Source: Chromatiales bacterium
Lineage (GTDB): Bacteria; Pseudomonadota; Gammaproteobacteria; JAGRGH01
NCBI GenBank assembly: GCA_020445605.1
Contig: JAGRGH010000001.1
Span: 1-38,009 of the forward strand
Reading direction: 5' to 3'
Length of the DNA: 38,009 bases
Shown here in pieces: positions 1,578-31,171 of the stretch; within the stretch, counting starts at the first letter, position 1, and every line of letters begins with the position of its first letter. The notes beneath the pieces are model-generated. The model was given only the letters and a program-made list of their open reading frames with translations, had not been told where the DNA came from and did no database searches. The translations under genes and the position numbers were made by a program.

Positions 1578-2870
1578 GTGCAAGGCATACGGACAGCAAA
1601 AGGTTTTGTGATTCTGGTGGCATTACTGTTATCGACGACGAGTCATTCGGAATCGCTTGAGGACGCCTGGAGAACAGCTCTCGCAGTTGATCATAGTCTC
1701 AGAGCGGCCCACCTTACCGCTGCCTCGGAGGAAGCGCGTCTGGATGCTGCGAAATCCCGCCGACTGCCAACGCTGAACGTGGAGGCTGGGTACCTCTCCA
1801 AGAGCGATCCCTCTATTGTTGATATCAGCGAGCTCAATTTACCCGCCGTTGAGCAGTTTCAGGCTGATGAAAAGGAGAGCCTCTCATACGGCGCCAATGT
1901 TAGTGTGCCCGTATATACCGGTGGCCGTATTAGCCAGGGCATCAATGCGGCCAACCACCAGCTTGAGGCGGCACAGAGTGAAACCGCCACAGCCATCCAG
2001 AATCTGAAGATGCGGGTGGCTGAAGCATACATAACTGTGCTTCGAACACACCGCGCCCGCACGGTAGCCGAAAGCCAGGTAATGAGTCTGGAGGCTCATG
2101 CCGAAGATACGGAGCACTTGTTTGAGCAGGGTCTGACCGACAAAAACGCGTTACTGTCAGCGCGCGTTGCGTTAGCGGATGCGAAACACCAGTCCTTACA
2201 GGCATGCAACGACGTTGATGTGGCACAAGCCGCATACAACCGTATTTTAGGTCGACCGCTTACCCAGGCGGCAGCCCCGGATGAAGTCGAACTTGTCCTT
2301 CCGGATGATGACCTGGAAGATTTGACACTCCGTGCGCTACAACAACGGCCTTCAATATCTATTCTTTCCCATCGGATGGAAGCCTTTCAAGCACAAGCAG
2401 CCGCAGAAAGATCGGTGCGGCGTCCACAGGCGGCGATAAGCGGTGGCTATAACCATACGGAAAACGAGTTTCAGGCCCACGAAGGTATCTGGTCGGTAAA
2501 ACTTGGCCTGGAATGGAAACTCTTCGATGGTGGGACGGCTAACCATACAAGTGCTGCGATCATCCGTAAAGCCGATGCCTTGTCCGAGTCGCGCGCCGAC
2601 CTGGCATCAAGGATCACGCTAGAGGTGCGGGAAGCCTGGCTGGATTTGAATGAAAGCCGGGAACGTATTGCTGTCACACAGCAAGCTGTCAGCCAGGCTG
2701 AAGAAAATCTAAAGGTGGCGGTAAACCTTTTTAAAGCTGGCATGGCCACGCATACGGAGGTCTTGGAGGCAGAACGTCTGCGCACCACAACCTATACCAA
2801 TAACAACAATGCAATCTATGACGCAGCGCTCGCTGGGTTGCGTCTGCGTCGCACTCTGGGTGAATTATGA
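1578..2870 (+). CDS. TolC-family outer membrane efflux channel
   Basis: Outer membrane channel of a tripartite efflux pump, 430 aa, about the usual length for the TolC/OEP family. The GTG at 1578 is preceded by GAGAGG. Residues 1-25 form a secretion signal ending near SHSES. The rest shows the two-fold OEP repeat: long helical segments rich in Ala, Glu and Gln, alternating with strands such as LSYGANVSVPVYTGGRI and WSVKLGLEWKLFDGGTA, which are the paired strand motifs of the family. No lipobox Cys is seen, so it is TolC-like rather than an OprM-type lipoprotein. It is the first gene of a four-gene operon. Its stop overlaps the start of the TetR gene by 4 bases (ATGA), so translation is probably coupled. 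Substrate unknown. Confidence 0.9.
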   Translation: MQGIRTAKGFVILVALLLSTTSHSESLEDAWRTALAVDHSLRAAHLTAASEEARLDAAKSRRLPTLNVEAGYLSKSDPSIVDISELNLPAVEQFQADEKESLSYGANVSVPVYTGGRISQGINAANHQLEAAQSETATAIQNLKMRVAEAYITVLRTHRARTVAESQVMSLEAHAEDTEHLFEQGLTDKNALLSARVALADAKHQSLQACNDVDVAQAAYNRILGRPLTQAAAPDEVELVLPDDDLEDLTLRALQQRPSISILSHRMEAFQAQAAAERSVRRPQAAISGGYNHTENEFQAHEGIWSVKLGLEWKLFDGGTANHTSAAIIRKADALSESRADLASRITLEVREAWLDLNESRERIAVTQQAVSQAEENLKVAVNLFKAGMATHTEVLEAERLRTTTYTNNNNAIYDAALAGLRLRRTLGEL

Positions 2871-3469
2871 CACGTCCCAAGAACCCTAAAAGCAAGGCGC
2901 ATATCCTGGAGCTGGCGATCCCATTGTTTGCCCAATCGGGATTTGCAGGTGTGTCCATGCGGGATATCGCCAAGACAGTTGGCGTCACCGCCGCTTCGCT
3001 CTACCACCATTTTCCGGACAAAGAGGCGCTGTATCTGCAAACGATGGCAAAGGCCTTTGAAGACAAGGCCGAGGGCTTCGAGAAAGCGCTGTCAGCCACG
3101 GGGACGGCTGAACAACGCCTGGAGAAATTTGTCGCGACCTTCACGAAATTGATGAGTGACGATCCGGACTTCAGGGCACTGCTGCAACGTGAGCTGCTGG
3201 ATGGTGATGAAACCCGTTTGAAGCTGCTGGCCGAGCAGGTATTCCGTGAACCCTTTGTCGCCATGGAGGCGCTGGTCAGTGAACTGGTGCCTAGCTGTGA
3301 TGCGCACATGCTCGCCATTTCCATGGCCAGTCTGATTTTATATCACTTGGAAACAGCGCCTATTCGCCGATTCTTCCCTGGAGGTAAAGCAAAACACAAC
3401 AAGCCGACTGTTATAGCTCGGCATGTGACGCGACTGTTACTTCACGGATTGAGGGGATGCGGCAAATGA
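2867..3469 (+). CDS. TetR/AcrR-family transcriptional regulator
   Basis: A 200-aa one-domain-pair repressor. Residues about 8-56 form the TetR HTH (AIPLFAQSGFAGVSMRDIAK, then VTAASLYHHFPDKEALY), which matches the family consensus closely. The C-terminal helical part (about 60-200) would bind the inducer and is not conserved. It overlaps the TolC-type gene before it and the adaptor gene after it by ATGA junctions, so it is made from the same transcript as the pump it most likely controls. That gives a feedback loop: repressor and pump rise together when the operon is derepressed. The palindrome at 1523-1541 is the best operator candidate. Ligand unknown. Confidence 0.9.
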   Translation: MTRPKNPKSKAHILELAIPLFAQSGFAGVSMRDIAKTVGVTAASLYHHFPDKEALYLQTMAKAFEDKAEGFEKALSATGTAEQRLEKFVATFTKLMSDDPDFRALLQRELLDGDETRLKLLAEQVFREPFVAMEALVSELVPSCDAHMLAISMASLILYHLETAPIRRFFPGGKAKHNKPTVIARHVTRLLLHGLRGCGK

Positions 3470-4521
3470 GTCGTTTGAGGTCGCAAGTCGTTCTACTGAT
3501 TCTGGTGGCGGTGGCCATGCTGGGAGGCTGCAATGATCCTGATGCCGGTGAAGATATCCAGACTAGAGAGCAAACCGCAAACCTGCACAGTGTCCAGGTG
3601 GCATTGACGGCGATTCCGCGCATCTACCAGTCACCCGGCAGCGTCGTTTCCAGTCAGGAATTCGTGGTGACATCCAACATCAGCGGATTCATACAGGTGA
3701 TCGCAGTCGAGGAAGGTGACTGGGTCGAAGCAGGCGACTGCCTGGTGCAGATTGATCCGACCAAGGTTGAACGCGCGATCGCACAGGCCGAAGCCTCGGT
3801 CGCCGCAGCGCGCGCGGAGCTGGAAGACGCCGAAGACGATGTCAGGAAATACCGGGCCCTGGTCAAATCAGAATCTATCTCCAAAGAACGGTTGAGAAAG
3901 GCTGTCTTGCGCCAGAAGCAGGCCAGGGCTGCATTGAATAACGCGCAGGCAGCGCTGGATGTCCAACGCACCGACCTCGACTACATCCAGATTACCAGTC
4001 CGGCCAGTGCTCAAGTCAGCAAACGTCTCTTGAATGTAGGTGATCTGTCGCTTCCGGGTGCTCCCATCCTCCAGCTGGAATCGCTGGAGTCGATGGAATT
4101 CGAGACCCACGTGCCGGAAAAGATCCTTATCCATATCCAGCTGGGGCAACCCGTCACCGTCGAACTGGATGTCCTTGATCAGACCATCACAGGCGAGCTG
4201 ATGGCAGCCGTTCAGTCAGCAGATCCGGCGACTCGCAGCGGCAAAGTGAAGGTAAGGTTACCGGATCGTGCTGATCTCATACCGGGCATGTTTGGGCGCG
4301 TCTCGTTTATCACGGGAAACGATACCTACCTCACTGTGCCTGAAACCAGTGTGGTGACACGAGCCGGTGTGGAGGGCGTCTTTGTTGTCAGCCGGGAATA
4401 CGGCGCACGCTTTGTCAGTGTCAGAACCGGGGCGCGATGGAAAGACCAGCGAATCATCCTAGCGGGTCTTCGGCCGGATGACCGCGTTCTTCCTGATCCA
4501 CCGGCAGCAAGATTTGATTGA
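3466..4521 (+). CDS. RND efflux periplasmic adaptor, lipoprotein
   Basis: Membrane fusion protein linking the inner membrane RND pump to the outer membrane channel. I chose ATG 3466 because it forms the ATGA overlap with the TetR gene and has GAGGGG about 10 bases upstream. An in-frame ATG at 3457 is too close to that SD. A type II signal ends in LGGC with Cys22 as the lipid site, so it is anchored in the inner membrane. The HlyD order is visible: a barrel and lipoyl half (SNISGFIQVIAVEEGDWVEA), a helical hairpin (about 100-165, rich in Ala/Glu/Lys), the second lipoyl half (ITSPASAQVSKRLLNVGD), then the barrel and membrane-proximal parts. About 351 aa, a normal length. Confidence 0.9.
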   Translation: MSRLRSQVVLLILVAVAMLGGCNDPDAGEDIQTREQTANLHSVQVALTAIPRIYQSPGSVVSSQEFVVTSNISGFIQVIAVEEGDWVEAGDCLVQIDPTKVERAIAQAEASVAAARAELEDAEDDVRKYRALVKSESISKERLRKAVLRQKQARAALNNAQAALDVQRTDLDYIQITSPASAQVSKRLLNVGDLSLPGAPILQLESLESMEFETHVPEKILIHIQLGQPVTVELDVLDQTITGELMAAVQSADPATRSGKVKVRLPDRADLIPGMFGRVSFITGNDTYLTVPETSVVTRAGVEGVFVVSREYGARFVSVRTGARWKDQRIILAGLRPDDRVLPDPPAARFD

Positions 4522-4532
4522 CGGCCGCTGCG

Positions 4533-7500
4533 ATGAGCGAAAAAGATGCGACTTCATCACTGAATATTGCGGGCCATCTGGCACAGACGTTTGTCGAATC
4601 CCGTCTTGTTATTCTAATGATTCTGGGCATCCTGCTATATGGCAGTTTTGGCCTGGTTTTCACGCCACGCGAGGAAAATCCACAGATTGTTGTACCAGCG
4701 GCCGAGGTGCAGGTGGCCTACCCGGGTGCTCAGCCGCTCGAAGTCGAGCATGCGATCCTGAGACCACTGGAAACACTGCTGAGTACCATCGATGGCGTAA
4801 AACATACCTATGGCACAGCACTCGCCGGGATGGCTGTTGTGCAGGTAGAGTTCGAGGTTGGCGAAGATAAGGATGATGCCCTGGTCAGGATATATGACCA
4901 CGTGTTACGGCATCAGGATGAACTGCCGGTGGAGGCTGGCGAGCCGAAGATAAAAAATATCGATGTCGATGATGTGCCCGTGTTCACCCTGACACTGGCA
5001 TCAGATCAGTACTCCGATTACGAACTCTATCGAATGGCTGAACGTGTTCTGGAGCGCCTGCGCAGTGTTTCCGGAATCGGGGCCAATTATATTGTGGGCG
5101 GGCGTCAGCGCGAACTCAGAATTGCGGTCGACCCGGAGCGCCTGCGGGCCTTCGCCATCCCGGTGGAGCAAATCAAGGTGGCGGTGCAGACGGCTAACGT
5201 AGCTTCGCCATTGGGTGCACAGGTGATAGAAGGCGAAAACCGGCAGATCCGGCTTGAGGGTCACTTGAACAGCAGCCACGAACTACAGGATTTGGTGGTC
5301 GGTAAAAACGAAGGTAGGGTGATACATCTTCGTGATGTTGCCGAGGTGATCGACGGACCGCCCGCCGAACACCGGCGCTATACCCGCTTTGCGTTTGGAG
5401 TCGCTGATACACGTTCACTGAACACATTGGGCAAGGAAATGGCAGCGGTCACTATCGCTATCGCCAAACGTCCGGGGATTGATGCAGTGCCTTTTACCCG
5501 AGAACTCAGAGGTCGTCTGGATCAAATCAAGCACAGCATCCTGCCCCCGGATGTCTACGCCACCGTGACGCGTGACGACGGCGAGAAGGCCAACCATACC
5601 GTTAACCGGCTGGTCGAGCACATGTTTATAGCGATCGGTTCCGTCACTATCGTGCTGTTTTTATTTTTGGGCTGGCGCGCCGCCATCATTGTCTTGCTGG
5701 CTATTCCACTGGTGATTCTGGTGGTGTTGGGTTCAGATATGCTTGCGGGACCTACCCTCAATCGTATCAGCCTGTATGCGCTCATTCTCTCGCTGGGTAT
5801 GCTGGTCGACGACGCCATTGTCGTTATTGAGAATGCACACCGGCATTTCGCAATGCTGCCCCGAGATACAGGGCGTGATGCCAAAGCACGCAGTGTCGTA
5901 CTGGCCACCAACGAAATCGGCAACCCCACGACACTTGCGACCTTTACCGTCGTTGTTGTCTTTCTCTCGCTGCTGCTGGTGACGGGCATGCTGGGTCAGT
6001 ACTTCCGGCCCATGACTTTCAATCTGCCTGTTGCCATGATCGCATCGCTGTTGCTTGCCTACTCGGTGACACCGTGGATGATCCGGCGCTGGTTGCCCGT
6101 CGGCAATCACCAGGGTGAGGAGGCTCCAGCAAGAGATTGGCTACAGAAGGGCTACCGGGCACTGTTTCTGCCACTCGTCACCCATAAAAGGAAGCGCCAT
6201 GCTTTTTATGCAGTGGTGGGTCTGCTGCTGGTACTTTCGCTGTTGCAGCCTGCCTGGCAGTTCATACGTCCACAGGGTGTCTCCGGCGCGACCTCGATGA
6301 TGGGGGTTCCACTGGCCTTTCTCCCAAAGGCCGATAAAAACACCTTCCTGGTCAGTCTGCGGATGGCAGACAATACGCCGCTGGAAGACACTGACCGCAT
6401 CGCGCGCGACATTGAGGCCGTCCTGGTACGCCATCTCGAAGTACAGAACATCGAGAGTTATGTCGGGACGCCCTCGGTCATCGATTTCAACGGACAGTTA
6501 CGCGGCAGCGGTTCCCGCATTGGACCGCAGTATGCAGAGATCCGCGTTAATCTGACGGATAAGACCACACGGGATATTGCCTCGATAGAAATTGTTCACC
6601 AGTTGCGCCCAGCAATTAAGGCAGTGGTAAAAGACTACCCTGACGCCGTGGTTCAGTTGGTTGAAGACCCGCCGGGGCCCCCGGTTCGCGCTACGGTATT
6701 TGCCGAGATTTATGGCGCAAACCGGAAAGTACTGGAAAAACTGGCTAAGGATATCGAGGGTGAGTTTGGCTCCACGTTCGATATGGCTGAAGTCTTTACC
6801 AGCGTACCCACGGACATCATGGAATATCGTATTGCCGTCGACCGTGAAAAGTCCGCGTTATCGGGGATCAGCACGGCACAAGTCACTGCGAGTCTGGCGC
6901 AATTGATGCCGGGAGAGACACTCGGTTACGCACACATTGACGGTGAGCGCCAACCGGTGCCGATTCGATTTCAGGTCCCCCGCCAGCAACGGATTGAACC
7001 GGACCAGTTGGAGCGTGTAGGGATAAGCAATGATCAGGGGCAACATGTCCCGCTATCCGAGTTGACGAAGATTGAGATAGCTGAATACCCCCGTCCGATC
7101 TTTCATAAAGACACGGAACGCGTCGAGTATGTGGGTGGGGAACTCAGGGACAGTGCGCCGGTGTATGCGATTCTGGATCTGGATAAACGTCTGGATGGCC
7201 GTGATCTCGGCGAAGACGGGAACCTGACGACTGCCAATCTTCGTTTCAATTCCGACCGTCCCAATACACTGGAAGGCTACAAGCTGCTTTGGGAAGGTGA
7301 ATTACGGCTGACCCTGGACGCCTTTCGGGATATGGGGATCGCTTTACTGTTGGCACTGGCGGCTATTTATCTGTTGCTGGTCGGATACTATCGCTCGTTC
7401 CGTCTACCGATACTGGCCATGGTATCGATTCCGTTGGCAATGATCGGTGTTTTTCCAGGGCACTGGATCCTGGGCGTGACGTTCTCGGCCGCCTCCATGA

Positions 7501-7826
7501 TCGGTGTGATTGCCCTGGCCGGTGTAGTGGTACGAAACTCGCTGCTGATCATCGACTTCATTCAGGCCTATCAGAAGGAGGGATATTCTCTCGAAGAAGC
7601 CATTTGTGAGGCCGGTACCGTTCGTCTTCGGCCAATTTTACTAACGACCCTGGCGATTATATTCGGCACGGCAATCATGGTGCCGGATGCCGTAATCGGT
7701 GGTCTGGCAATCAGTCTGATCTTCGGTGCAGCCAGTTCAGCCGTCTTTACAGTATTTGTAGTGCCGCTGCTGTATCGCAGATTGGTGTCAGTGGATGCGG
7801 GGATACCTGATCTGGAGCCTGAATAG
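4533..7826 (+). CDS. RND-family efflux pump permease
   Basis: Inner membrane proton-driven exporter, about 1097 aa, the full length of the AcrB/MexB superfamily. It has the expected order: a first transmembrane helix (residues about 20-42), a large periplasmic porter loop, a helix bundle, a second transmembrane helix, a second loop and a closing bundle. The proton-relay motif GMLVDDAIVVIENAH is present, with the Asp pair at about residues 426-427. ATG 4533 is preferred. An upstream TTG at 4518 in the same frame overlaps the adaptor stop, and neither has a strong SD. Many RND pumps of this branch (with a lipoprotein adaptor and TolC-type partner) export organic toxicants, but the sequence does not give the substrate. 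Nothing suggests a frameshift. Confidence 0.92.
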   Translation: MSEKDATSSLNIAGHLAQTFVESRLVILMILGILLYGSFGLVFTPREENPQIVVPAAEVQVAYPGAQPLEVEHAILRPLETLLSTIDGVKHTYGTALAGMAVVQVEFEVGEDKDDALVRIYDHVLRHQDELPVEAGEPKIKNIDVDDVPVFTLTLASDQYSDYELYRMAERVLERLRSVSGIGANYIVGGRQRELRIAVDPERLRAFAIPVEQIKVAVQTANVASPLGAQVIEGENRQIRLEGHLNSSHELQDLVVGKNEGRVIHLRDVAEVIDGPPAEHRRYTRFAFGVADTRSLNTLGKEMAAVTIAIAKRPGIDAVPFTRELRGRLDQIKHSILPPDVYATVTRDDGEKANHTVNRLVEHMFIAIGSVTIVLFLFLGWRAAIIVLLAIPLVILVVLGSDMLAGPTLNRISLYALILSLGMLVDDAIVVIENAHRHFAMLPRDTGRDAKARSVVLATNEIGNPTTLATFTVVVVFLSLLLVTGMLGQYFRPMTFNLPVAMIASLLLAYSVTPWMIRRWLPVGNHQGEEAPARDWLQKGYRALFLPLVTHKRKRHAFYAVVGLLLVLSLLQPAWQFIRPQGVSGATSMMGVPLAFLPKADKNTFLVSLRMADNTPLEDTDRIARDIEAVLVRHLEVQNIESYVGTPSVIDFNGQLRGSGSRIGPQYAEIRVNLTDKTTRDIASIEIVHQLRPAIKAVVKDYPDAVVQLVEDPPGPPVRATVFAEIYGANRKVLEKLAKDIEGEFGSTFDMAEVFTSVPTDIMEYRIAVDREKSALSGISTAQVTASLAQLMPGETLGYAHIDGERQPVPIRFQVPRQQRIEPDQLERVGISNDQGQHVPLSELTKIEIAEYPRPIFHKDTERVEYVGGELRDSAPVYAILDLDKRLDGRDLGEDGNLTTANLRFNSDRPNTLEGYKLLWEGELRLTLDAFRDMGIALLLALAAIYLLLVGYYRSFRLPILAMVSIPLAMIGVFPGHWILGVTFSAASMIGVIALAGVVVRNSLLIIDFIQAYQKEGYSLEEAICEAGTVRLRPILLTTLAIIFGTAIMVPDAVIGGLAISLIFGAASSAVFTVFVVPLLYRRLVSVDAGIPDLEPE

Positions 7827-7877
7827 ATGACAAGTGAAAGGCTTCGTTTGGTGGGTTTTTACTAATACCGATGTCCG

Positions 7878-8453
7878 ATGGTTATTCAAACTGAATCACG
7901 TCTCACCACCAAGATTAGCCTGCTACTGGTTGGCTTAGTCGTGGTCAGTATGGCCGATGCCGGTGAAGTGTTGAAAGCGAAGGTTACTCATCAGTCGGGG
8001 CTTTACACGCCGGAACTGGACGCTCGGATTACTGCACCGGTGCCAGACGTACACCGCCTGCTGACCGCCTACAACCACCTCGAACAAGTGAACCCCGCAG
8101 TAAAGGAAAGTGCGATCATCGAAACCTACAGCCCGGCTCATCACCGGGTCCGCAGTGTAATCGAGGCTTGTGTTGCTTTCTTCTGTAAGCGCCTGATACA
8201 GGTTTGGGATGTGGAACAACGCAGCAACGGTGAAATTGTGGCAGCGATTGTGCCGGAGGTAAGCAACTTCCGCTTTGGCGACGCACACTGGGTATTACAG
8301 GAGGAAAACGGCGGGACACACCTGCAATTCACGACACGTCTCGAACCCGCATTCTGGGTGCCGCCTCTGATCGGCCCCTGGATAATCCGCTATAAACTAC
8401 ATCAGGAGGGACTGGAGAGCGTAGAAAACCTGGAGCGCTTGGCCCGTTTCTGA
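7878..8453 (+). CDS. Secreted START/SRPBCC-like protein
   Basis: A 191-aa protein with a signal peptide (TKISLLLVGLVVVSMADAGE) followed by a fold like the START/polyketide cyclase (SRPBCC) group. Features that fit are ITAPVPDVHRLLTAYNHLEQVNP near the start, a central run of strands, and a C-terminal amphipathic helix (RYKLHQEGLESVENLERLAR). Such domains have a hydrophobic pocket for lipids or aromatic compounds. The mature protein would be periplasmic. It starts 51 bases after the RND gene on the same strand, so it may be transcribed with the pump. A role in handling the pump's substrate or membrane lipid is inference. Cys residues in EACVAFFCKR could form a disulfide. Confidence 0.7.
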   Translation: MVIQTESRLTTKISLLLVGLVVVSMADAGEVLKAKVTHQSGLYTPELDARITAPVPDVHRLLTAYNHLEQVNPAVKESAIIETYSPAHHRVRSVIEACVAFFCKRLIQVWDVEQRSNGEIVAAIVPEVSNFRFGDAHWVLQEENGGTHLQFTTRLEPAFWVPPLIGPWIIRYKLHQEGLESVENLERLARF

Positions 8454-20483: not shown

Positions 20484-20579
20484 TCCAAGCGACATGCCAG
20501 GCGTGAGCCTGGCGGGTCGCTTGGATTGCAGCGAAGTCGCCCTCGTCACTAGCGAGCGCAGCGGGGTAGTGACGAGGGC
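20484..20579. other. Two strong hairpins, oriT or single-strand origin candidate
   Basis: First hairpin: TCCAAGCGAC (20484-20493) plus GCCAGGC (20496-20502), loop GTGA, then GCCTGGC (20507-20513) plus GTCGCTTGGA (20516-20525). That is 17 pairs with one 2x2 internal bulge. Second: GCCCTCGTCACT (20539-20550) and AGTGACGAGGGC (20568-20579), a perfect 12-bp repeat with a 17-base loop. No gene covers them. Such paired repeats are seen at relaxase sites and single-strand origins, but no relaxase gene is in the window to match. Confidence 0.5.
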
Positions 20580-20684
20580 GGCGGTCCCGGGAATGGCGCG
20601 GGCTTGCGATCGAATTTCGGGATTACAGCGGGATGATGTGTTCCTATACTGCGCCCTCGAAACGAAGATCTATTGAATTTAACC

Positions 20685-20755
20685 GTGGCCACTGCGGGTA
20701 CAGTGGCAAACAAGCGCATCCGGACCATGCAACGCGCTGCGGCTATTCGCCGTTG
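20685..20755 (+). ncRNA. Structured leader RNA, copy B (same motif as 15911)
   Basis: P1: CCACTG (20689-20694) with CAGTGG (20701-20706). The linker CAAACAA (20707-20713) is identical to copy A. P2: GCGC (20714-20717) with GCGC (20734-20737), extended by an A-T pair, around a 16-base loop containing GGACCATGCAAC. P3: CGGC and GCCG just after. Compared with copy A, the outer pair of P1 changes from T-A to C-G and the P2 stem sequence changes while pairing is kept. Confidence 0.7.
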
Positions 20756-20774
20756 GTCCATCTTCCAGCCAACA

Positions 20775-20818
20775 CGGACCGCAAGGTCCGCCCTTCACGT
20801 AGGCGCAAGCCTGTTTTT
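20775..20818 (+). terminator. Two hairpins after RNA copy B, the second with a T run
   Basis: CGGACC-GCAA-GGTCCG (20775-20790) is a compact 6-bp hairpin. AGGC-GCAA-GCCT (20801-20812) followed by GTTTTT (20813-20818) is a weak intrinsic-terminator shape, placed like the one after copy A. Confidence 0.4.
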
Positions 20819-20931
20819 ACCCGACGAGCCGAGACGGTCGCGCCTGATGATCCCACTCAGGGCGATCCCGTCGACGCTCATTTTTCATAAACCCGCGGAC
20901 TGAGTCCGCACAATTGAAAGGAGGTGATGTG

Positions 20932-20946
20932 ATGAAACCACACTGA
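20932..20946 (+). CDS. Four-codon mini-ORF with a very long Shine-Dalgarno match
   Basis: AAAGGAGGTGAT (20917-20928) matches the 16S rRNA 3' end over 11 or more bases and stands 3 bases before ATG 20932. The frame encodes only Met-Lys-Pro-His and stops at TGA 20944-20946. A GC hairpin (GCGGAC, TGA, GTCCGC, 20895-20909) lies just upstream. It could be a leader peptide, a ribosome-holding site, or a chance ORF next to a functional anti-SD-like sequence in an RNA. Confidence 0.35.
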   Translation: MKPH

Positions 20947-20952
20947 GAGAAC

Positions 20953-21100
20953 GCCCGAGATCGGGCAGGTTGGCCAGCGCCGGGCCATTACCCATAAGGG
21001 GAAACCGGCGTTGCCTGAGACCAGGCATACTCAGGTCGAATGGGAGTGGTGTCCCTGACCGTTTCGCGAAAGCGAGCCCAGTTAGCTACGGCTACCGGGT
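20953..21100 (+). ncRNA. Multi-hairpin stretch, structured RNA candidate
   Basis: No protein frame fits. Hairpins follow each other closely: GCCCG-AGAT-CGGGC (20953-20966), CGCCGG...CCGGCG (20979-21010, with CCC-ATAA-GGG inside), TGCCTG-AGAC-CAGGCA (21012-21027), TCAGG...CCTGA (21031-21058), TCGC-GAAA-GCGA (21064-21075) and AGC-TACG-GCT near 21084. The density of short stems with tetraloops over about 150 bases is unusual. It lies between the mini-ORF and the recombinase gene. Confidence 0.5.
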
Positions 21101-21133
21101 GGTCATAAACACTTACCAGATAGAGATTGCACC

Positions 21134-22000
21134 GTGAGAGATCTGAACTACCAACTCAAACAACTCTGTCATCGCAACCGCGACGGCAGCTATTCCACAC
21201 AAGCGAAGCGTATGCATCACTTGATGCTCATCGCAAATCAGCTGGATGCGTTGGGTTTTCGTGGCATGAACGCGCGCTCGTTGAAACCAAAGCATGTCGA
21301 GGCGCTGGTCAAGGATTGGCTGGCGCAGGCACTCAGCGTCGGCACGATCAAGAATCGGATGGCGGTCTTGCGTTGGTGGGCGCAGAAGGTGGACAAGCAG
21401 AATGTCGTAGCCCGATCGAACGACCACTACGGGATCCCGGATCGGCAGTTCGTGACCCATGGGTCGAAAGCAAAGTCGCTGGGCGCGCCGGACCTCGACA
21501 AGGTACGTGATCCGTTCGTGCGGATGAGCCTCGAATTGCAGCAGGCCTTCGGCCTGCGCCGTGAAGAGGCGATCAAGTTCAGTCCCGGTTACGCCGACCG
21601 CGGTGACCGCATCACGCTGAAGGCCAGTTGGACCAAAGGCGGCAAGGAACGCGACGTACCGGTACGCAGCGATGAACAGCGCGCCGTGTTGGATCGCGCG
21701 CGTCGGCTTGCCGCAGGCGGTTCCCTCATACCAACGGATCGGAACTACGTGCAGCAGCTGCGCACCTACGAACGGCACACGGCCAATGCCGGCCTCTCGA
21801 AAATGCATGGTTTGCGCCACGCGTATGCGCAGCGGCGTTACGAAGAGCTGACCGGGTGGAAGGCGCCGGCCGCCGGCGGGCCGGTGACGCGGGCGCTCAG
21901 CCCCGGGCAGAAGGTGATGGACCGACACGCGCGGCAGACCATCAGTCGGGAACTCGGGCATGAACGCGAGCAGATCACTTCGGTGTACTTAGGGCGCTGA
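21134..22000 (+). CDS. ICE-borne tyrosine recombinase (integrase domain protein)
   Basis: A 288-aa protein starting at GTG 21134. It has an N-terminal SAM-like DNA-binding domain (residues about 1-85, with SVGTIKNRMAVLRWWAQKV) and a catalytic domain of the Integrase_1 type found in PFGI-1-class ICEs. Catalytic residues visible are Arg in FGLRREEAIKF, the HGLRHAY box, LGHERE, and the Tyr in TSVYLGR near the C-terminus. It lacks an Arm domain and is unlike the integrase at the window's left edge. This family is thought to act within the element rather than in chromosomal integration, but its role is not established. It follows the hairpin-rich RNA region directly. Confidence 0.85.
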   Translation: MRDLNYQLKQLCHRNRDGSYSTQAKRMHHLMLIANQLDALGFRGMNARSLKPKHVEALVKDWLAQALSVGTIKNRMAVLRWWAQKVDKQNVVARSNDHYGIPDRQFVTHGSKAKSLGAPDLDKVRDPFVRMSLELQQAFGLRREEAIKFSPGYADRGDRITLKASWTKGGKERDVPVRSDEQRAVLDRARRLAAGGSLIPTDRNYVQQLRTYERHTANAGLSKMHGLRHAYAQRRYEELTGWKAPAAGGPVTRALSPGQKVMDRHARQTISRELGHEREQITSVYLGR

Positions 22001-30476: not shown

Positions 30477-30695
30477 ATGGCTGGCAACCATAACGCATCA
30501 CCATTCTCCGTCGACGACCCTGAAATTGCAGAGGTCCTCGACATGCGCACGAGCTCAATCAGCCCCGCTCATGAGGCTATAGGTTCAGATTACGACCAGG
30601 CAATGGCCCTACGCATGGAGCTTGGTGAGGCATCACTCATCCGGTTTGTTCAATGTCGGCCGCCTCGTTCACGGTCTCTTTCAGCATGTTTCTGA
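30477..30695 (+). CDS. Short ORF of unknown nature, probably truncated
   Basis: A 72-codon frame (MAGNHNASPFSVDDPEIAEV...) after the PIN gene, with AGGAGG 12 bases before ATG 30477. The first ~58 residues look protein-like and acidic. The tail (CRPPRSRSLSACF) reads like out-of-frame sequence running into the EmrA remnant, so the original 3' end is probably lost at the junction near 30650-30710. Not recognised. Confidence 0.35.
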   Translation: MAGNHNASPFSVDDPEIAEVLDMRTSSISPAHEAIGSDYDQAMALRMELGEASLIRFVQCRPPRSRSLSACF

Positions 30696-30712
30696 GATAC
30701 TTCCGGGCAACC

Positions 30713-31171
30713 TCGTTACTCGATCAGGCCCGGCTCGACCTGGAGCGGATCGACGTGCGTGCTCTGCTGCCCGGCATTGTGAGCAAACCGCCCAAACCGG
30801 GGCAGTATGTCGGCGCTGGGGCTACGGCGCTGGTCTTGGTGGTCAGCGGTGACCTCTGGGTCGAGGCCAACTTTCCAGAAACCGATCTCACCTACGTCCA
30901 TCCCGGCCAGCCGGTAACCATCAAGGTCGACACGTACCCAGACACGACCTGGAAGGGTGTGGTGGACAGCCTGAGCCCCGCCACCGGGTCGGAGTTTTCG
31001 GTCATCCCTGCGCAGAACGCCACTGGCAACTGGGTCAAAATTGCCCAGCGGGTGCCTGTGCGGATCCGTATCGAGGCCGTGCCGAACGCGCCGCAACTGC
31101 GCGCGGGACTGAGCACCATAGTGGATATCGACACCGGCCACCGCCGCCACGTGTTCGGGCTCTCGCTCTGA
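30713..31171 (+). pseudogene. EmrA/HlyD-type efflux adaptor, C-terminal remnant
   Basis: The frame reads SLLDQARLDLERIDVRALLP, then GIVSKPPKPGQYVGAGATAL, LWVEANFPETDLTYVHPGQP and PAQNATGNWVKIAQRVPVRI, ending at TGA 31169-31171. This is the second lipoyl half and barrel domain of an EmrA-like membrane fusion protein. The signal anchor, first lipoyl half and helical hairpin are missing, so only about 150 of roughly 350 residues remain. The true gene would have paired with an EmrB pump, whose first codons follow at 31184. Confidence 0.8.

What the first reader, a model, noticed from the sequence alone, without database searches (positions are those of the whole stretch)
20953..21100. Dense run of compact hairpins upstream of the recombinase gene
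At least five short stems with 2-6 base loops follow one another in about 150 bases, with no protein frame. Together with copy B and the mini-ORF this makes about 400 bases of apparent RNA. It may be a longer non-coding RNA than any single known motif.
Basis: seen in the sequence. Interest (0 to 1): 0.6.

Follow-up and report, generated by a model that had tools for sequence, protein, structure and literature searches.

The report
Transfer-origin RNA module of an ICE
The run of hairpins is a conserved folded element, probably an RNA, placed between a likely DNA-transfer origin and an enzyme related to the transfer enzyme of Salmonella genomic island 1, so this conjugative element, in which no usual transfer enzyme was found, probably spreads by an RNA-assisted mechanism so far known from that one island family.

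Summary
20953-21100 folds better than shuffles (z -2.4), and its core (20964-21117) is conserved in 58 distinct relatives. About 47 double substitutions on the tree keep base pairing, against 2.0 expected and at most 7 when partners are slid. No Rfam family matches. The mini-ORF is not conserved.

The downstream "recombinase" (21134-22000) is homologous to MpsA of SGI1 (36% identity, E 3e-23, same Pfam PF12835), the proposed atypical relaxase. Relatives on two small plasmids are followed by VirD4-type coupling proteins. No TraI-type or PF03432 relaxase was found in the window's genome, and in a class-wide sample no genome had both this RNA and the usual ICE relaxase TIGR03760.

Upstream lies an inverted repeat (GTCACTA-N15-TAGTGAC) resembling the one in SGI1's oriT region (GTCTCTG-N16-CAGAGAC). 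The order oriT-like repeat, structured RNA, relaxase matches SGI1, whose sgm-sRNA is essential for transfer by an unknown mechanism. An [A/T]nACTnACC motif lies upstream of most relatives tested, including SGI1 mpsA, where it falls inside the sRNA.

Best reading: an oriT / sgm-like RNA / tyrosine-recombinase-type relaxase module. Orphan RNA copies without an intact relaxase gene suggest hitchhiking islands. The RNA model does not detect sgm-sRNA itself, so RNA homology is unproven.

The parts
20538..20580 (+). IR1: CGCCCTCGTCACTA-N15-TAGTGACGAGGGCG; GTCACT/AGTGAC near-constant, flanking pairs co-vary; proposed core of the origin of transfer
   Evidence: Conserved upstream of the RNA in most ICE-type loci and five orphans; same geometry as GTCTCTG-N16-CAGAGAC in the oriT region upstream of SGI1 mpsA
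20622..20650 (+). promoter-like site ATTACA-17-TATACT
   Evidence: Only sigma70-like site found in 20500-21200, 0.3 expected; the -10 hexamer is conserved in the alignment. A consensus match only
20687..20707 (+). IR2: GGCCACTGCGGGTACAGTGGC
   Evidence: Conserved about 130-200 bp after IR1
20917..20928 (+). AAAGGAGGTGAT, complementary to the 3' end of 16S rRNA; fixed distance (mostly -193 to -203 from the RNA 3' end), no conserved start codon
   Evidence: Present in 45 of 58 loci; start codon absent in many
   Evidence: Alignment
20953..20966 (+). variable hairpin GCCCGAGATCGGGC
   Evidence: Sequence and fold; poorly conserved
20976..21012 (+). P1 stem with inner hairpin P1b
   Evidence: Double canonical changes at most pairs
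21013..21026 (+). P3 hairpin GCCT/AGGC (also GTCT/AGAC; GCCG/CGGC in one subgroup)
21042..21055 (+). P4 hairpin GGG-AGTGGTGT-CCC, pairs invariant, loop nearly so
   Evidence: invariant pairs give no covariation evidence
21056..21105 (+). three-way junction P5 (TGACC/GGTCA) with P6 (often GNRA loop) and P7 (often UNCG loop)
21108..21117 (+). AACACTTACC motif, shared across the family and with SGI1 (TCACTTACC, -67 from mpsA)
21134..22000 (+). tyrosine-recombinase-type protein (PF12834+PF12835), proposed relaxase, MpsA homologue; R142, H225, R228, H229, H276, Y285 present

Best explanation
The locus is a conjugative transfer-initiation module: an oriT-like region (IR1/IR2, about 20538-20707), a structured RNA (transcribed from about 20658, conserved core 20915-21117), and a relaxase of the tyrosine-recombinase type (21134-22000). 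It stands in for the TraI (MOBH) relaxase usual in PFGI-1-class ICEs. Proposed mechanism: the MpsA-like protein binds IR1 and nicks the ICE with its tyrosine. The RNA, like SGI1's essential sgm-sRNA, folds into a scaffold ending in AACACUUACC that the relaxase (or the complex it forms with the coupling protein TraD) needs for assembly or delivery to the secretion channel. Shown here: conserved structure, homology of the protein to MpsA, order of parts, lack of detected usual relaxases, orphan copies. Inferred: transcription, RNA rather than single-stranded DNA as the active form, nicking at or near IR1, and scaffolding.
For: Covariation: 47 double canonical changes vs 2.0 expected, slid controls at most 7.1; 18 of 28 RNAalifold pairs changed on both sides. 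Plus-strand bias: G-T 109 vs A-C 29 outside P5; UNCG in 35/58 and GNRA in 25/55 tetraloops fit an RNA. Protein: BLASTP 36% over 174 aa, E 3e-23, to a 321-aa protein with R162, H247, R250, H251, Y319 and a following 98-aa gene, i.e. SGI1 MpsA/MpsB as described in PMC6414798; both hit PF12835. Plasmid relatives are followed by VirD4-type coupling proteins. Relaxase replacement: own genome lacks TIGR03760, PF07514, PF03432 though it has a T4SS; RNA and TIGR03760 never co-occur in 369 genomes; among 31 PilL genomes 0/5 with RNA vs 17/26 without it have TIGR03760, Fisher p 0.012; one genome with four such ICEs has neither TIGR03760 nor PF03432. The ICE has a separate integrase (69-1193). Shared [A/T]nACTnACC and GTCWCT inverted repeat. 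Six of 25 RNA copies lack an intact relaxase gene; five keep IR1/IR2.
Against: The covariance model gives no real hit in SGI1 (3.8 bits, tail only), so RNA homology to sgm-sRNA rests on position plus a short motif. A phylogeny-simulated G-test found no pair beyond its null, although top-ranked pairs include many structural ones. Orphans keep the RNA in cis, which a purely trans-acting RNA would not strictly require. No transcript or transfer data. A subgroup (L016, L020, L022-L025, several G090 copies) has RNA and gene but no IR1/IR2. MobK, TcpM and other relaxase families were not compared or searched. A separate MpsB is not seen.
Confidence: 0.6

Rival explanations
1. The hairpins act only as single-stranded DNA: they are the origin of transfer itself, folding when the strand is displaced and recognised by the relaxase, with no RNA function.
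For: Orphan copies keep the whole region in cis without the relaxase gene, as expected of oriT; L134 and L136 similarity ends just after AACACTTACC; a DNA fold would co-vary as well.
Against: Plus-strand G-T bias and UNCG/GNRA loops, a 16S-complementary motif at fixed distance, a promoter-like site upstream. In SGI1 the oriT is separable from the sRNA core, which holds the ACTTACC motif by my coordinate mapping and acts in trans (PMC9299015).
Confidence: 0.22
2. A structured 5' leader of the recombinase mRNA that controls its expression in cis (riboswitch, thermosensor or protein-binding autoregulation).
For: It lies directly upstream on the same strand, ending 17 nt before the start codon, with a promoter-like site in front.
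Against: Orphan RNAs persist without the gene, and L134/L136 differ by two compensatory double changes with no broken pair. In SGI1, MpsAB supplied in trans does not rescue loss of the RNA (PMC9299015).
Confidence: 0.1
3. The gene is an ordinary integrase and the hairpins and inverted repeats are its recombination site (attC-like or attI-like).
For: Pfam names it an integrase and catalytic residues are kept; the RNA+gene block is found in different surroundings in one genome.
Against: The ICE has its own integrase, the gene stays next to PilL in many ICEs, plasmid relatives sit next to coupling proteins, and its homologue MpsA is a mobilization protein (PMC6414798).
Confidence: 0.08

Closest known systems
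SGI1 mobilization module: oriT, sgm-sRNA, MpsA/MpsB (PMC6414798, PMC9299015)
   Same: Order oriT-like repeat, RNA region, tyrosine-recombinase-type protein; homologous protein (36%, E 3e-23, PF12835); ACTTACC motif upstream of the gene; GTCWCT inverted repeat
   Different: Self-transmissible-type ICE rather than a mobilizable island; protein carries its own N-terminal SAM domain instead of a separate MpsB; RNA not recognised by the covariance model; promoter-like site lies after IR1, whereas SGI1's P5 lies before oriT
MobK of pIGRK and TcpM of pCW3 (MOBM and related tyrosine-recombinase-like relaxases; PMC8152469, PMC12857230)
   Same: Tyrosine-recombinase type; oriT upstream of the gene (as reported)
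   Different: No sequence comparison made here; no RNA reported for them in the papers read
PFGI-1-class ICE relaxase TraI (TIGR03760/PF07514, MOBH)
   Same: Initiates transfer in the same T4SS class
   Different: Unrelated enzyme; not found in the window's genome nor together with this RNA in the class sample
IMEs with oriT mimicry (concept cited in PMC11389934)
   Same: Orphan RNA/IR copies without an intact relaxase gene, one near its own integrase and an FlhC-like protein
   Different: Mobilization not tested; here a structured RNA would be kept along with the oriT

Membership tests
MpsA-type (tyrosine-recombinase-like) relaxase | Significant sequence homology to MpsA / shared Pfam PF12835 | tested here: met
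   BLASTP E 3e-23; both hit PF12835
MpsA-type (tyrosine-recombinase-like) relaxase | Catalytic R, HxxRH and Y | tested here: met
   R142, H225, R228, H229, Y285 aligned with MpsA R162, H247, R250, H251, Y319
MpsA-type (tyrosine-recombinase-like) relaxase | Separate MpsB partner gene | tested here: not met
   No MpsB hit in the listed loci; the protein has its own PF12834 N-terminal domain
MpsA-type (tyrosine-recombinase-like) relaxase | Required for conjugative transfer; nicks oriT | not testable with these tools
   Needs mating and nicking assays
sgm-sRNA | RNA region between oriT and the relaxase gene, same direction, ending just before it | tested here: met
   Position and order; RNA nature of the window element itself is inferred
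sgm-sRNA | Sequence/structure similarity to SGI1 sgm-sRNA | tested here: inconclusive
   Model R1 gives only 3.8 bits; ACTTACC shared
sgm-sRNA | Transcribed, processed, essential and active in trans | not testable with these tools
   Needs Northern blot and complementation
oriT of MpsA-type systems | Inverted repeats upstream of the relaxase gene | tested here: met
   IR1, IR2; GTCWCT repeat also in SGI1, Aeromonas and Oceanimonas relatives
Any Rfam family | Match above gathering score | tested here: not met
MOBM (TcpM) relaxase | Sequence homology to TcpM | not tested
   TcpM sequence not fetched

The most novel reading that the evidence does not exclude
A widespread class of conjugative elements (ICEs, small plasmids typed as non-mobilizable, satellite islands) starts DNA transfer with a ribonucleoprotein: a tyrosine-recombinase relaxase plus a dedicated structured RNA that is part of the relaxosome. 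Satellites would carry the RNA/oriT alone and borrow the enzyme.
Probability: 0.35. Interest if true: 0.92.

Novelty: new variant of a known kind. Interest (0 to 1): 0.76.

Why it matters
SGI1's sgm-sRNA is essential for transfer, but its mechanism is unknown and its authors found no precedent for an RNA in a conjugation complex (PMC9299015). This finding gives a likely relative or analogue outside SGI1, with a defined secondary structure, a shared motif, a candidate oriT repeat and orphan copies, so specific mutants can be designed. It would explain how PFGI-1-class ICEs without TraI move. It also suggests that some plasmids typed as non-mobilizable are mobilizable: 120 of 187 plasmid records with this protein family bear that label.

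Tried and rejected
Rfam search: nothing. Mini-ORF leader peptide: start codon not conserved. A pseudoknot TGGYC/GRCCA read by eye: only 1.2 double changes vs 0.35 expected, not supported. G-test covariation with a tree-simulated null: no pair at E below 0.2, reported as negative; the event-count test was run afterwards. Terminator: none found. SGI1 by accession and through E. coli mnmE insertions: failed; it was found by chance in a host-derived contig filed as a Salmonella phage. DNA search of plasmids with the window region: no match. PDB sequence search of the protein: no relative.

Full report
What was checked. Its folding energy is better than dinucleotide shuffles (z -2.41, 2 of 200 as good), as is that of 20640-21133 (z -2.61). 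No Rfam family matches.

Setting. The window is one whole contig (38,009 bases) with a PFGI-1-class ICE: ParB, PFL_4669, PilL2, TIGR03759, PFL_4695, TraD and TIGR03747. The secretion genes TIGR03745, 03749, 03752, TraC, 03756 and 03755 lie on another contig, C17. The ICE integrase is a separate gene at 69-1193. An AbiE pair lies just upstream.

Conservation. Fifty-four loci with related proteins were fetched, mostly gammaproteobacterial. Blastn shows two conserved blocks travelling with the gene: about 20537-20715 and 20937-22000. The core aligns well. A covariance model finds it in 12 of 369 genomes of the class.

Structure. On a tree of 58 distinct sequences, the nested pairs of the proposed fold carry about 47 branches on which both sides change and pairing is kept; matched column pairs give 2.0, and sliding one partner by 1-6 columns gives at most 7.1. 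RNAalifold on 42 sequences independently finds P1, P3, P4 and P7 (and part of P6), with 18 of 28 pairs changed on both sides; it pairs the P5 region differently. A stricter G-test with simulated null alignments did not call any single pair significant, though many of its top-ranked pairs are structural. G-T exceeds A-C among pairs outside P5 (109 to 29; the binomial p ignores relatedness), which points to folding of the plus strand. P7 has UNCG loops in 35 of 58 and P6 GNRA loops in 25 of 55 tetraloops. These favour RNA over DNA but do not prove it.

Upstream elements. IR1 (GTCACTA-N15-TAGTGAC with co-varying outer pairs), a promoter-like site, IR2 and an AGGAGGT motif at nearly fixed distance are conserved in most ICE-type loci. 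The AGGAGGT motif is not followed by a conserved start codon, so the mini-ORF is rejected.

The protein. A tblastn search of phage records hit a 3.1-kb contig from a Salmonella Kentucky lysate. It encodes a 321-aa protein with R162, H247, R250, H251 and Y319 and, one codon on, a 98-aa protein. These are the features published for SGI1 MpsA and MpsB (PMC6414798). The window's protein aligns with it at 36% identity, E 3e-23, and both match PF12835. MpsA is proposed to be an atypical relaxase. On pSIO1 and a Pleionea plasmid, homologues precede VirD4-type coupling proteins. The own genome has no TIGR03760, PF07514 or PF03432 relaxase. In the class sample RNA and TIGR03760 never co-occur; among genomes with PilL the contrast is 0 of 5 against 17 of 26 (Fisher p 0.012). 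Of 41 genomes carrying the protein family, 33 lack PF07514, and 17 of 19 tested lack PF03432. One genome with four such ICEs lacks both TIGR03760 and PF03432. In Sedimenticola the ICE that has TraI lacks the RNA and protein around its PilL, while other ICEs in the same genome have them.

Parallel with SGI1. In SGI1 the order is oriT, sgm-sRNA core, mpsA, all in one direction; the sRNA is essential, acts in trans, and its mechanism is unknown (PMC9299015). The window shows oriT-like IR1/IR2, structured RNA, MpsA-like protein. The motif [A/T]nACTnA[C/A]C lies 23-104 nt upstream of most family members tested (exceptions include L058, L059, L060, L062, L073, L074, L106, L157 and single-base variants in L051 and L094), including SGI1 (TCACTTACC, -67). 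By my mapping of published coordinates it falls in the 3' part of the functional sgm-sRNA. A 10-bp repeat CCCGTCTCTG-N16-CAGAGACGGG lies in the SGI1 oriT region, its arms nearly unchanged in Aeromonas plasmids; the assignment to oriT uses the published overlap of S021 and S022. The R1 model itself does not score SGI1 (3.8 bits), so RNA homology remains open.

Orphans. Six of 25 RNA copies lack an intact relaxase gene; in one the gene is cut at about codon 20, next to an IS3-like ORF. Five of the six keep IR1/IR2. Two in one genome, 91% identical over 408 bp, differ by two compensatory double changes and no broken pair. One of these lies about 5 kb from its own integrase and next to an FlhC-like gene; SGI1 likewise encodes an integrase and an FlhC-family activator. 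These look like satellites that borrow the relaxase, but they may also be remnants.

Verdict. The most likely reading is an oriT / structured RNA / tyrosine-recombinase-type relaxase module in an ICE. Novelty is judged against the papers held here: reviews of 2021-2025 list only TcpM, MobK and MpsA as such relaxases (PMC8152469, PMC12857230). Unread or subscription papers may say more.

Noticed in passing
L145 (OR851053.1, 1-3144): A record filed as a Salmonella phage is a fragment of the SGI1 mobilization region, presumably host DNA in the lysate.
   Followed up: yes
plasmid collection: Many small plasmids with this protein family are typed non-mobilizable (120 of 187; 107 of 168 with MpsA as query), possibly because typing tools do not know this relaxase type.
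   Followed up: partly
L134/L143, L136/L144, L118, L125, L128: Orphan RNA/oriT-like copies sit beside defence or toxin-antitoxin genes (Fic and type I restriction genes, AbiE-like, a predicted NTPase, HipB-like); some keep the first codons of the relaxase gene.
   Followed up: partly
G090 (L057, L072, L076, L079, L081-L085): One genome carries 12 full or partial matches to the protein; most of its RNA copies lack IR1/IR2, a separate subgroup with L016, L020, L022-L025 and unknown context.
   Followed up: no
20917-20928: Conserved complement of the 16S rRNA 3' end at fixed distance from the RNA end without a start codon; role unknown.
   Followed up: partly
L020, L023, L025, L028, L043: Contigs titled Klebsiella pneumoniae MAG carry genes of environmental gammaproteobacterial type; probably mislabelled bins.
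   Followed up: no
G000:C17 (L098), about 27.8-39.1 kb of the contig: BREX genes (BrxC, BrxL) lie beside the ICE secretion genes, so this ICE probably carries a BREX system.
   Followed up: no
1578-8453 and 30653-31171: Efflux gene clusters (TetR, RND and TolC-type; EmrA-like) flank the ICE genes in the window, possibly cargo.
   Followed up: no
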